From Actinocorallia populi (lineage in GTDB: Bacteria; Actinomycetota; Actinomycetes; Streptosporangiales; Streptosporangiaceae): a stretch of DNA of 64,000 nt. Within the stretch, counting starts at the first letter, position 1, and each line of letters opens with the position of its first letter. Position numbers and translations under genes: made by a program. The stretch lies in NCBI RefSeq assembly GCF_002995495.1, contig NZ_PVZV01000005.1, forward strand, positions 186,001-250,000. Direction: 5' to 3'. Under the pieces are notes generated by a model that saw only the letters and a list, made by a program, of their open reading frames with translations, was not told the DNA's origin and did no database searches. Positions 11,492 through 17,600 of this stretch are shown here, in pieces.

Positions 11492-12715
11492 TCAGGGGTA
11501 GTTCGGGTTGTTGGCCACGGGGATCTCGATGCTGATCTCCTTGGCCTCGGAGACGTAGAGCAGCACGAACTTGCGGATGAACTCGTCGAGGGTCCAGTAG
11601 GCCGCCGGCGCCAGCGGGAAGGGGAGCAGCCCTTCGCGGACGGCGATGAACGGCATCCAGGCCGTCTCGAGGATCCCGGTGAAGACCGGGGTCCTGGGGA
11701 GCTTCAGCCATCCGGCGATCTCGTCGCCGAGCAGGAAGCGCGTGAACGCGGTGAGGACGGGCCTGCTCAGGACGGTGCCGTCGAGCTGGGCTCCGAGGTC
11801 GAGGAGGATGTCGGCCAGCTTGATGCCCTCGGGGGTGGGGGCGAGCACGGCGTCCAGGGACTGCTTGGCCTGGGACTCGGCCTCGGTCCAGGAGTCGGGG
11901 ATGTACTCCTCCTTGATGCCGAGCATGTAGGCGGTCAGCTGCCACGAGTGCAGGAAGGCGTCGGCCTCGGCGGTGGGGATCGGCACCCTCCAGCCCTTCA
12001 GCTGGCGCATGACGGTCGTGGGCAGGCTGTGCCAGGTGACCATCATGTCCATCTGGCTGATCGGGATCTCCTCGTCGGCGACCTTGTCCCAGTGCGGGGA
12101 CTTGGGCAGCAGGTGGCGCACCGCGGCGTGCACCAGGCGGGTCTTGACGCAGGTGACGATCATCTCGCCGTCGGCGGCGAAGGCGTTGCGGGTCCCGATG
12201 TCGTAACCGAGCTTGGCGGTCTTGGAGATGCGGTCCTTCATGTCCGCGCCGCCCTGCGAGTAGTAGACCGCGCGCGCCTCCTTGGGGATGACCGTGCTGA
12301 TCATCCCGCTGGCGAAGCCGTAGAGGACGCCGAGGTAGAGTCCGCGCTTCTCGTTGAACCTGAAGGCGGTGGCGAGCTTGCCCTGGTCGGCCCACGACGG
12401 CAGCTTGCGGGCCTTCTCGATGAAGTTCTTCAGGTCGGCCGGGAGTCCGGCGGGCAGCGGCTGGCCGTTCTTGGTCCAGGTCCGCAGCAGCTGGTTGACC
12501 CGGGGCACGTCGCCCCGGTCGATCAGGGAGGCGACCAGCGGGTCGGCCTCGTCGTCCCACACCGTCCGCGGGTCGGCGCCGAGGCCCGCGCCCACGACCG
12601 ACCCCTTGGGCGACCACGTCCACAGCGCCTGCGCGGGCGAGGCGGCGCCGAGCGCGCCGACGGCGCCCAGCGTTCCGCTCGCCAGCAGCAGGTCGCGCCT
12701 GCTTGGCTTCTCCAT
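11492..12715 (-). CDS. lcp: latex-clearing protein (Lcp), rubber oxygenase, Tat-exported
   Basis: A 407-residue b-type cytochrome dioxygenase of the DUF2236/Lcp family, which cleaves the double bonds of poly(cis-1,4-isoprene) outside the cell to oligo-isoprenoid aldehydes/ketones. The N-terminus is a twin-arginine signal (SRRDLLLASG, hydrophobic stretch, cleavage near SPAQA-LW at about 30). Residues described as functional in Streptomyces K30 Lcp all reappear here with a constant offset of two: Glu146, Arg162, Lys165, Thr166 and the haem-ligand His196 in TRLVHAAVRHLL. The start is preceded by a GAGGAG-type ribosome site. It is divergent from a TetR gene and next to an aldehyde oxidoreductase operon, the known lcp context. 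The residue comparison is from memory of the K30 enzyme. Confidence 0.92.
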   Translation of the reverse strand: MEKPSRRDLLLASGTLGAVGALGAASPAQALWTWSPKGSVVGAGLGADPRTVWDDEADPLVASLIDRGDVPRVNQLLRTWTKNGQPLPAGLPADLKNFIEKARKLPSWADQGKLATAFRFNEKRGLYLGVLYGFASGMISTVIPKEARAVYYSQGGADMKDRISKTAKLGYDIGTRNAFAADGEMIVTCVKTRLVHAAVRHLLPKSPHWDKVADEEIPISQMDMMVTWHSLPTTVMRQLKGWRVPIPTAEADAFLHSWQLTAYMLGIKEEYIPDSWTEAESQAKQSLDAVLAPTPEGIKLADILLDLGAQLDGTVLSRPVLTAFTRFLLGDEIAGWLKLPRTPVFTGILETAWMPFIAVREGLLPFPLAPAAYWTLDEFIRKFVLLYVSEAKEISIEIPVANNPNYP

Positions 12716-12754
12716 GCCTTGCTCCTCTTCGGGCCGAGAACGCCTTGGTGATAT

Positions 12755-15318: not shown

Positions 15319-17600
15319 CCGACCTGATCGCCGACCTCGAGACCCCGACCGCGCCGGCGGGCACCGGCACCGTGCGGCTCGGCCAGCCGGTGTCGCGGGT
15401 GGACGGCGTGGCCAAGGTGACCGGCCGCGCCCGCTACGCCGCCGAGCACCCCGCCGCCGACCTCGTACACGGCGTGGTGGTCAACAGCACCATCGCCAAA
15501 GGCCGGATCATCTCCCTCGACACCCGCAAGGCGAGGGAAGTCCCGGGCGTGCTGGCAGTGCTGACCCACGAGAACCGGCCGAGGACGCGTTCGCTCGGCC
15601 TCGCCTTCAAGGACCTGACGGCTCCCGCGGGCTCGCCGTTCAAGCCGCTGCACGACGACCGCATCCGCTACAGCGGCCAGCCCGTGGCGCTCGTCCTGGC
15701 CGAGACGTTCGAGGCCGCGCGGGCGGCGTCACGCCTGGTACGGGTGCGCTACGACGAACGCCCGCACGACACGAACCTGATGGCGAACCTCCGGAAGGCG
15801 CACCGCCCCCGGCCGCTGAAGTTCGGATACAAGCCGCCGCCCTCCGAGAAGGGCGACGCACGGGCGGCCTACGGCGCCGCCGAAGTGAAGATCGACGCCG
15901 TCTACACAGCCGGAGTCGAGCACCACAACCCCATGGAGATGTTCGCCTCGACCGTCATCCTCGGGGAAGACGGGCACCTCACGATCTACGACAAGAACCA
16001 GAGCTCCATCAACTGCCGCTCGTACGTGTCGCGCGTGTTCGGTCTCAAGAAGAGCCAGGTGACGGTGCGCAACCCCTACGTGGGCGGCGCGTTCGGCTCG
16101 GGCCTGCGCCCGCAGTACCAGCTGCCCCTCGCGGTGATGGGGACGCTGCACCTGGGACGCTCGGTGCGCGTGGTGATGACCCGCCAGCAGATGTTCACCT
16201 TCGGTCACCGGCCCGAGACCTGGCAGCGCGTGCGCCTGGCCGCCGACCGCGACGGCACGCTGCGCTCCATCGAACACGTGGCGATCGCCGAGACGTCGCG
16301 CATGGAGGACTACACCGAGGTCGTCGTGAACTGGTCGGGCAAGTTGTACGCGTGCGACAACATCCGCCTCGGCTACCGGCTCGTCGACCTCGACCAGTAC
16401 ACGCCCATCGACATGCGGGCCCCGGGCGCCGCACACGGCGTGCACGCGCTCGAGGTGGCGATGGACGAACTCGCCGTCGAGCTGGACATGGACCCGCTGG
16501 AACTGCGGCTGCGCAACTACACCGAATCCTCGCCGACGGAAGGACTGCCGTACTCGTCCAAGGAACTGCGGGCCTGCTACACCCGAGGCGCCGAACGTTT
16601 CGGCTGGGCCGACCGCCCGCCGCACCCCCGCTCGATGCGCGACGGGCACGAGCTGGTGGGCTGGGGCATGGCCACCGGCATCTGGGACGCGGCCCAGTTC
16701 TACGGCCGCGCCACCGCGGTGCTGCACGCGGACGGCCGCCTTGTCGTCAGCAGCGCGGCCAGCGACATCGGCACCGGCACGTACACGGTGATGACGCAGA
16801 TCGCCGCCGCGACCATGGGCCTGCCACTGGAGGACGTGGTCTTCCAGCTGGGCGACTCGAACCTGCCGCTGGCCTCCGTCGAGGGCGGTTCCAGCCATGT
16901 GGCGACGATCGGCTCGGCCGTCGAAGGCGCCTGCGTGGAACTGCGGCAGAAGCTCCTCCGCATCGCCGGCCGCCTGCCCGGCTCCCCGTTCGAGCACCTG
17001 ACCCTCGACCAGGTCGAGTTCACCGACGGCTCCCTGCGCGTCGCGGGCTCCCCGGAACGCTCGATGCGCCTGGTGGACCTGCTGGCCGCGGCGGACGAAC
17101 AGCGCCTCGAAGCGAGCCACACCCTGGTGTCCAACATGTTCCGCAAACGCAAGTGGGCACTGGGCACCCACTCGGCGGTGTTCTGCGAGGTCAAGGTCGA
17201 CGAGGACCTCGGCACCGCCCGGGTGACCCGCGTGGTGAGCGCGATCGCCGCAGGCCGCATCATGAACCTGAAGACGGCGACGTCGCAGATCTCGGGCGGC
17301 GTGGTGTGGGGCATCAGCCAGGCCCTGCACGAGGAGACCCACAGCGACCACCGCCTCGGCCGCTTCATGAACCACAACCTCTCCGAGTACCACGTCCCGG
17401 TCAACGCCGACATCTCCAACATCGAAGTCCTCTTCGTCGCCGAGGACGACCGCGTCGCCAGCCGCCTCGGCGCCAAGGGCGTCGGCGAGATAGGCATCGT
17501 CGGCGTCTCCGCCGCGGTCTGCAACGCCGTCCACCACGCCACCGGCCGCCGCGTCCGCAGCACCCCCATGACCCCGGACAAGATCATGCGTCCCTGGTAA
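15315..17600 (+). CDS. aldehyde oxidoreductase, molybdopterin large subunit (OxiB/PaoC-like)
   Basis: A 761-residue catalytic subunit starting at a GTG that overlaps the FAD-subunit stop. The N-terminal a/b-hammerhead domain begins near VDGVAKVTGRARYAAEH. Molybdopterin-binding segments include YVGGAFGSGLRPQ, DMRAPGAAHGVHALEVAMDE and GSSHVATIGSAVEGA. The active-site Glu of the family is expected in AKGVGEIGIVG near the C-terminus. Full length. In this locus its likely substrates are the isoprenoid aldehydes made by Lcp. A MoCo sulfuration/insertion factor (XdhC/PaoD type) is not encoded in the window and must come from elsewhere. Confidence 0.93.
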   Translation: MTDLIADLETPTAPAGTGTVRLGQPVSRVDGVAKVTGRARYAAEHPAADLVHGVVVNSTIAKGRIISLDTRKAREVPGVLAVLTHENRPRTRSLGLAFKDLTAPAGSPFKPLHDDRIRYSGQPVALVLAETFEAARAASRLVRVRYDERPHDTNLMANLRKAHRPRPLKFGYKPPPSEKGDARAAYGAAEVKIDAVYTAGVEHHNPMEMFASTVILGEDGHLTIYDKNQSSINCRSYVSRVFGLKKSQVTVRNPYVGGAFGSGLRPQYQLPLAVMGTLHLGRSVRVVMTRQQMFTFGHRPETWQRVRLAADRDGTLRSIEHVAIAETSRMEDYTEVVVNWSGKLYACDNIRLGYRLVDLDQYTPIDMRAPGAAHGVHALEVAMDELAVELDMDPLELRLRNYTESSPTEGLPYSSKELRACYTRGAERFGWADRPPHPRSMRDGHELVGWGMATGIWDAAQFYGRATAVLHADGRLVVSSAASDIGTGTYTVMTQIAAATMGLPLEDVVFQLGDSNLPLASVEGGSSHVATIGSAVEGACVELRQKLLRIAGRLPGSPFEHLTLDQVEFTDGSLRVAGSPERSMRLVDLLAAADEQRLEASHTLVSNMFRKRKWALGTHSAVFCEVKVDEDLGTARVTRVVSAIAAGRIMNLKTATSQISGGVVWGISQALHEETHSDHRLGRFMNHNLSEYHVPVNADISNIEVLFVAEDDRVASRLGAKGVGEIGIVGVSAAVCNAVHHATGRRVRSTPMTPDKIMRPW

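What the first reader, a model, noticed from the sequence alone, without database searches (positions are those of the whole stretch)
11492..17600. Complete rubber-degradation module: exported Lcp, TetR regulator and three-subunit Mo-aldehyde oxidoreductase
Lcp carries a Tat signal and the full set of residues reported for Streptomyces K30 Lcp at a constant offset of two. A TetR gene is divergent, and a 2Fe-2S/FAD/MoCo oxidoreductase follows. Known lcp loci have lcp with oxiA/oxiB; here the regulator lies between them and the enzyme has three separate subunits. The organism probably cleaves polyisoprene outside the cell and oxidises the aldehydes inside.
Basis: partly seen in the sequence, partly recalled or inferred. 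Interest (0 to 1): 0.75.

Follow-up and report, generated by a model that had tools for sequence, protein, structure and literature searches.

The report
Rubber-cleaving enzyme with its repressor
This actinobacterium carries an ordinary exported rubber-cutting enzyme gene facing the gene of its likely repressor, while the aldehyde oxidase beside them is of a different kind from the one usually paired with rubber degradation and is more likely a neighbour than a partner.

Summary
The genes are real and at the stated coordinates. Lcp (11492-12715, -) is a convincing latex-clearing protein: 226 of 400 aligned residues identical to Lcp K30, all seven K30 functional residues checked are kept. The divergent TetR (12887-13567, +) is an LcpR-type regulator: a head-to-head lcp-tetR pair is in 65 of 72 distinct related loci, and a 35-bp inverted repeat lies between the genes in 58 of 66 such regions, window included. 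In this 8.25-Mb genome that operator (up to 3 mismatches) occurs at two places, each before an lcp gene. The third part of the finding does not hold as stated. The 2Fe-2S/FAD/Mo enzyme is not a three-subunit OxiAB but a PaoABC-type aldehyde oxidoreductase, without a Tat-like start, closest (68%) to Variovorax and Cupriavidus plasmid genes among sequences seen, beside lcp in 0 of 72 related loci, and with no LcpR operator before it. It is most likely a chance or acquired neighbour; a cytoplasmic substitute for OxiAB, which was not found in this genome, is possible but unproven. Known kind of module, new member; low-to-moderate interest.

The parts
11492..12715 (-). lcp: exported haem rubber oxygenase (latex-clearing protein), 407 aa, Tat-like start
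   Evidence: PDB 5o1l E 2.1e-153; Pfam MPAB_Lcp_cat 54.2 bits; 7 of 7 K30 residues checked are kept
12749..12783 (-). LcpR operator: 35-bp inverted repeat TGATACGCAGATGCAGATCGCGTTTCATCATATCA (lcp strand), 34-68 bp upstream of the lcp start
   Evidence: strict motif in 58 of 66 lcp-tetR intergenic regions, window included; 55.5 bits with a matrix trained without the window, next independent window site -10; 2 places in the whole genome, both before lcp
12799..12827 (-). putative lcp promoter: TTGTGA, 17-nt spacer, TGTTAT (lcp strand), ending 15 nt upstream of the operator
   Evidence: read by eye, coordinates checked; a CTTG element is in 62 of 66 regions, in 56 of them upstream of a strict operator; the generic sigma-70 scan did not list it
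12887..13567 (+). lcpR: TetR-family regulator, divergent from lcp
   Evidence: TetR_N 50.9 bits; 61-85% identical partners beside lcp in related loci; next best match in the own genome 35%
13679..14230 (+). 2Fe-2S subunit, PaoA-like but without a Tat-like start
   Evidence: NCBIfam PaoA 219.8 bits, cut-off 322; PDB 5g5g_A E 4.7e-54; two 2Fe-2S Cys motifs, no RR in the first 40 residues
14227..15318 (+). FAD subunit, PaoB-like; four of its Cys (121, 131, 140, 159) align with Cys of PaoB
   Evidence: PDB 5g5g_B PaoB E 1.8e-89; FAD_binding_5 143.1 bits; Cys positions
15315..17600 (+). molybdopterin subunit, PaoC-like, GVGEIG at 722
   Evidence: NCBIfam PaoC 608.6 bits, cut-off 1180; PDB 5y6q_C E 7.5e-156
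17610..17655 (+). terminator-like hairpin (two perfect 14-nt arms) and T-run closing the oxidoreductase operon
   Evidence: read, arms checked

Best explanation
A known two-gene rubber module, lcp-lcpR, with an unrelated or acquired aldehyde oxidoreductase operon beside it. Lcp is exported folded through Tat and cleaves polyisoprene outside the cell with one b-type haem, His196 as ligand (inferred from K30). LcpR binds the 35-bp inverted repeat just downstream of the lcp promoter and blocks lcp until an inducer, probably a rubber cleavage product, releases it (inferred). The same regulator probably controls the second lcp on contig 6, which has the same operator and no regulator of its own (inferred). 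The PaoABC-type enzyme is probably cytoplasmic and oxidises some aldehyde; it is not in the LcpR regulon by operator evidence, though read-through from lcpR over the 111-nt gap is possible.
For: Lcp residues and homology. Divergent lcp-tetR pair in 65 of 72 distinct related loci, while apart from lcp and tetR only scattered single matches link the window to the 8 related lcp loci compared from other genomes (G001 twice, G002 once) and to the own contig-6 locus. Operator: 49.8 bits of information, strict pattern in 58 of 66 intergenic regions; of the 8 regions without it, 5 still hold a site of 29-48 bits, and 3 (L040, L044, L047) score 12, 14 and -2. Two places in the own genome, C5:198749 and C6:57186, both before lcp; backward control 0. 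In 12 other genomes 12 places in 10 of them, 11 of the 12 within about 100 bp before an lcp start by the coordinates; none in G058 and G073, which had no Lcp match at 1e-120; control 0. The best motif site in the G. polyisoprenivorans VH2 lcp2 locus is the published LcpR-VH2 palindrome. Mo operon: PaoABC type, beside lcp in 0 of 72, grouped with Variovorax and Cupriavidus plasmid genes at 100/99 in the Mo-subunit tree, away from the 42-45% relatives of the same genus.
Against: No activity, binding or expression data; repression rather than activation is inferred from operator position. 6 of 40 family loci and 1 of 38 named loci have no adjacent tetR; of those 6, three (L059, L083, L072) have an operator (53.9, 42.5, 31.4 bits) and three (L063, L066, L068) have none. 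The VH2 site scores only 11.9 bits. The oxidoreductase starts 111 nt after lcpR on the same strand with no terminator-like site between, no OxiB was found in this genome, and 33 of the 65 paired distinct loci show no OxiAB (some of these stretches are cut short), so a functional link is not ruled out. In the FAD-subunit tree no strongly supported group holds the window (window+Variovorax 84/81).
Confidence: 0.78

Rival explanations
1. The PaoABC-type operon was captured beside lcpR and replaces OxiAB: oligo-isoprenoid aldehydes are taken up and oxidised in the cytoplasm instead of outside the cell.
For: No OxiB found in the genome (best partial hit 2.5e-12; the PF02738 model does detect OxiB, 84 bits, and finds three Mo subunits in the genome, none beside the other lcp genes). 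The operon follows lcpR on the same strand. Solved relatives are named aldehyde oxidoreductases. Nocardia and Gordonia are reported to use intracellular aldehyde dehydrogenase instead of OxiAB (PMC11169899 passage).
Against: No LcpR operator before it (best score -21.9 bits); beside lcp in 0 of 72 distinct related loci; no Lcp match in the 8-20 kb around 12 relatives of the operon (10 plasmid, 2 same-genus).
Confidence: 0.2
2. One reading: a complete rubber module whose oxidoreductase is a three-subunit form of OxiAB.
For: Adjacency; both enzymes have 2Fe-2S and molybdopterin subunits, and OxiA is 41% identical to the window 2Fe-2S subunit over 139 aa.
Against: OxiB shares only short stretches of 27-36% with the window Mo subunit; OxiB begins MPEPIPRRRFLG, Tat-like, while none of the three window subunits has RR in its first 40 residues; best families are PaoA, PaoB, PaoC.
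Confidence: 0.03
3. The Lcp-like protein is not a rubber oxygenase but another DUF2236 protein.
For: DUF2236 is broad; the genome also has a divergent member on contig 4 without the K30 Glu148 and Lys167 residues.
Against: 56.5% identity to K30 with all seven residues kept and the rubber-type regulator and operator.
Confidence: 0.02

Closest known systems
lcp1 locus of Actinoplanes sp. OR16 with divergent TetR ACTI_59620 (PMC7413915)
   Same: lcp with a divergent TetR gene whose product binds the lcp1 promoter; five Actinoplanes/Paractinoplanes loci held here (L021, L022, L026, L033, L038) have TetR 67-71% identical to the window's
   Different: OR16 has lcp1-lcp2-oxiB-oxiA in one transcript; here no second lcp and no oxiBA follow, and a PaoABC-type operon lies behind tetR. 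OR16 itself was not held and not compared directly
Lcp of Streptomyces sp. K30 (PDB 5o1l/5o1m, PMC5522427)
   Same: 226 of 400 residues identical, all seven functional residues checked
   Different: K30 has oxiA/oxiB next to lcp (PMC9108482 passages); not here
LcpR of Gordonia polyisoprenivorans VH2 and its lcp2 palindrome
   Same: operator of the same kind before lcp
   Different: the VH2 site scores only 11.9 bits on the motif; the LcpR-VH2 protein was not compared
PaoABC of E. coli (PDB 5g5g/5g5h) and the aldehyde oxidase of 5y6q
   Same: three separate subunits, four aligned Cys in the FAD subunit
   Different: no Tat-like start on the 2Fe-2S subunit, the only XdhC_C match of the genome is on another contig, scores below the NCBIfam cut-offs

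Membership tests
Latex-clearing protein (Lcp) | sequence homology to Lcp K30 over the full length | tested here: met
   E 2.1e-153, residues 4-404
Latex-clearing protein (Lcp) | haem ligands and active-site residues H198, K167, R164, T168, E148 (and R195, R202) | tested here: met
   7 of 7 kept (roles from PMC5522427 passages)
Latex-clearing protein (Lcp) | Tat export | tested here: inconclusive
   SRRDLL and AxA by eye; no predictor run
Latex-clearing protein (Lcp) | oxidative cleavage of polyisoprene | not testable with these tools
   needs an assay
LcpR (TetR regulator of lcp) | TetR gene divergent from lcp, conserved with it | tested here: met
   65 of 72 distinct loci
LcpR (TetR regulator of lcp) | palindromic operator before lcp | tested here: met
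LcpR (TetR regulator of lcp) | binding to the lcp promoter | not testable with these tools
   shown for OR16 in PMC7413915, not here
OxiAB | two subunits of the isoquinoline 1-oxidoreductase type, no FAD subunit | tested here: not met
   three subunits; Mo subunit not OxiB-like
OxiAB | Tat-like start on OxiB | tested here: not met
   no RR in the first 40 residues of any subunit
PaoABC | three subunits of PaoA/B/C type with extra Cys in the FAD subunit | tested here: met
   that these Cys hold a 4Fe-4S cluster in PaoB is recalled
PaoABC | curated NCBIfam cut-offs for PaoA and PaoC | tested here: not met
   219.8 against 322 and 608.6 against 1180
PaoABC | Tat export of the complex | tested here: not met
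   by motif only; that E. coli PaoABC is periplasmic is recalled, and the NCBIfam name peri_hyde_PaoC agrees

The most novel reading that the evidence does not exclude
A proteobacterial PaoABC-type aldehyde oxidase was captured next to lcpR and works as an intracellular substitute for the exported OxiAB, a third solution to the aldehyde step of rubber catabolism besides OxiAB and aldehyde dehydrogenase.
Probability: 0.18. Interest if true: 0.5.

Novelty: new member of a known kind. Interest (0 to 1): 0.3.

Why it matters
It adds one more lcp-lcpR locus and yields a sharp 35-bp operator consensus that can predict the LcpR regulon genome by genome; it also warns that an aldehyde oxidase beside lcp need not belong to the pathway. 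The consensus points to unexpected regulon members in relatives (a globin, an acyl-CoA ligase-like enzyme), which is directly testable.

Tried and rejected
OxiAB membership of the Mo enzyme: rejected on sequence, subunit plan and start. LcpR control of the oxidoreductase through an operator of its own: none found. Conserved synteny of the oxidoreductase with lcp: 0 of 72 distinct loci. Those 72 are what remains of 78 loci (38, 40) after dropping identical lcp genes; the own genome's other lcp-like loci (contigs 6, 10, 4), the VH2 locus and the G001 locus L095 were not counted. The 40 family stretches were picked by me from the 70 places listed, places without a second lcp first, so the share of loci with OxiAB is not a natural frequency. 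The first FAD scan used a wrong frame (start 14223) and gave no family; repeated in the right frame. A home-made gene caller to list the genes downstream of tetR in relatives missed the window's own Mo gene, so its output was not used; whether other lcp loci have aldehyde dehydrogenases nearby was therefore not tested. The trees hold 13 rows: the window, 2 same-genus genomes and 10 plasmid records, 4 taken from the 12 rows shown of 637 records and 6 from the 50 shown of 551; chromosomal proteobacterial genes were not searched, so the donor is only suggested. In the family and class searches (the samples overlap) the genomes listed without a match had only 4 or 2 candidates scored, and the cut-offs (1e-180, 1e-200) were strict: they speak against close orthologues, not against PaoABC as such, which the genus has at 43-45%. 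Literature: no paper with both 'latex clearing protein' and 'PaoABC'; one off-topic paper.

Full report
OBSERVATION. The window is contig 5, 186001-250000, of an 8.25-Mb genome in 25 contigs. Lcp, read from the ATG at 12715, has 407 aa and matches the solved Lcp K30 at E 2.1e-153, 226 of 400 aligned residues identical, with E148, R164, K167, T168, R195, H198 and R202 all kept at an offset of two (roles of these residues from passages of PMC5522427). The TetR gene is divergent. The 2Fe-2S, FAD and Mo genes overlap by 4 nt each and end at a terminator-like hairpin.

LCP AND ITS REGULATOR ARE A CONSERVED PAIR. One scan of genome contigs gave 38 named loci, from Planomonospora, Planobispora, Nonomuraea, Actinoplanes, Dactylosporangium, Streptosporangium, Gordonia and others; 40 more stretches were taken around lcp genes of family members, single-lcp places first. 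A divergent lcp-tetR pair is in 37 of 38 named loci and 34 of 40 family loci; after dropping identical lcp genes, in 65 of 72. An oxiB-oxiA pair is in 27 of 38 and 9 of 40, usually behind a second lcp. Published work agrees: in Actinoplanes OR16 the divergent TetR binds the lcp1 promoter (PMC7413915, sections 16 and 17 read).

OPERATOR. The 66 distinct intergenic regions (window included) share a 35-bp inverted repeat, consensus TGATACGCAGAAGCATTCCGTGTTTCATCGTATCA, by strict pattern in 58 of 66. Of the other 8, five hold sites of 29-48 bits and three, all Gordonia loci, score 12, 14 and -2. The matrix was trained on 55 sites without the window; the window site scores 55.5 bits and the next independent window position -10. 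In the VH2 lcp2 locus the best-scoring site, though weak (11.9 bits), is the palindrome reported for LcpR-VH2. In the own genome the pattern with up to 3 mismatches occurs at two places, before this lcp and before the contig-6 lcp (71-73% identical, no tetR of this kind matched within the 18-kb stretch held), with 0 in the backward control. In 12 further genomes it occurs at 12 places in 10; 11 are just before an lcp start (coordinates), the twelfth before a globin gene. Of six family lcp loci without tetR, three have a site and three have none. A promoter-like TTGTGA-17-TGTTAT ends 15 nt before the operator; a CTTG element is in 62 of 66 regions. I infer a repressor that blocks early transcription of lcp. 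The 40% contig-10 Lcp has no such site but keeps all seven K30 residues.

THE OXIDOREDUCTASE IS SOMETHING ELSE. Its best named relatives are PaoA, PaoB and PaoC and the aldehyde oxidase 5y6q, with scores below the curated cut-offs for PaoA and PaoC. Against OxiB/OxiA of Dactylosporangium AC04546 (L017) it shows 41% (2Fe-2S) and only short 27-36% stretches (Mo). OxiB starts with a Tat-like sequence; none of the window subunits does. The three subunits stand beside lcp in 0 of 72 distinct loci. In the same genus, G001 has the lcp-tetR pair without them (L058), and G001 and G002 each have a 42-45% relative elsewhere. No close orthologue appeared in 249 other family genomes or 393 other class genomes at strict cut-offs, whereas one Variovorax and one Cupriavidus plasmid carry 68% relatives and group with it at 100/99 in the Mo tree; the FAD tree gives no strongly supported group for it. 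No Lcp match lies in the 8-20 kb held around 12 relatives of the operon. The 111-nt gap before it holds no operator. No OxiB was found in the genome, and the one XdhC_C match is on contig 15.

VERDICT. A good rubber-cleavage locus of known kind, with a misread neighbour. The neighbour could still serve the pathway by read-through from lcpR; that is my most novel open reading, at 0.18.

LITERATURE SEEN. Passages: PMC9108482, PMC11169899, PMC8538451, PMC5522427, PMC6311187. Passages plus sections 16 and 17: PMC7413915. Other papers were seen in listings only. Rose et al. 2005, Coenen et al. 2019 and Oetermann et al. 2019 are known to me here only through these papers and were not read.

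Noticed in passing
L114 6444-6857 (same-genus genome G001, C1 about 3985822): A bacterial globin gene (PF01152, 87.7 bits; nearest plasmid hits annotated group 1 truncated hemoglobin) has the LcpR-type operator (33.2 bits) directly before its ribosome-binding site and the same CTTGTG...GTGTGCT elements upstream, so it looks like a member of the LcpR regulon.
   Followed up: partly
L024 15074-15108 (Actinophytocola algeriensis): A second LcpR-type operator (44.2 bits) lies about 145 bp before an AMP-binding enzyme gene (PF00501, 213.5 bits; minus strand, 13075 to about 14928) near the lcp genes, as expected for an enzyme that activates isoprenoid acids.
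   Followed up: partly
L005 7955-9221 (own genome, contig 6): Second Lcp, 71-73% identical, with a perfect operator but no LcpR-like gene beside it: a likely trans target of the window's LcpR.
   Followed up: yes
L006 8692-9894 (own genome, contig 10): Third Lcp-like protein, 40% identical, all seven K30 residues kept, no LcpR-type operator.
   Followed up: partly
window 6761-10203: Allophanate hydrolase-like gene and a response regulator/histidine kinase pair upstream of the locus; no link to rubber seen.
   Followed up: no
window 10376-11348: Two small hydrophobic-protein genes on the + strand between the kinase genes and lcp, no family above a curated cut-off.
   Followed up: no
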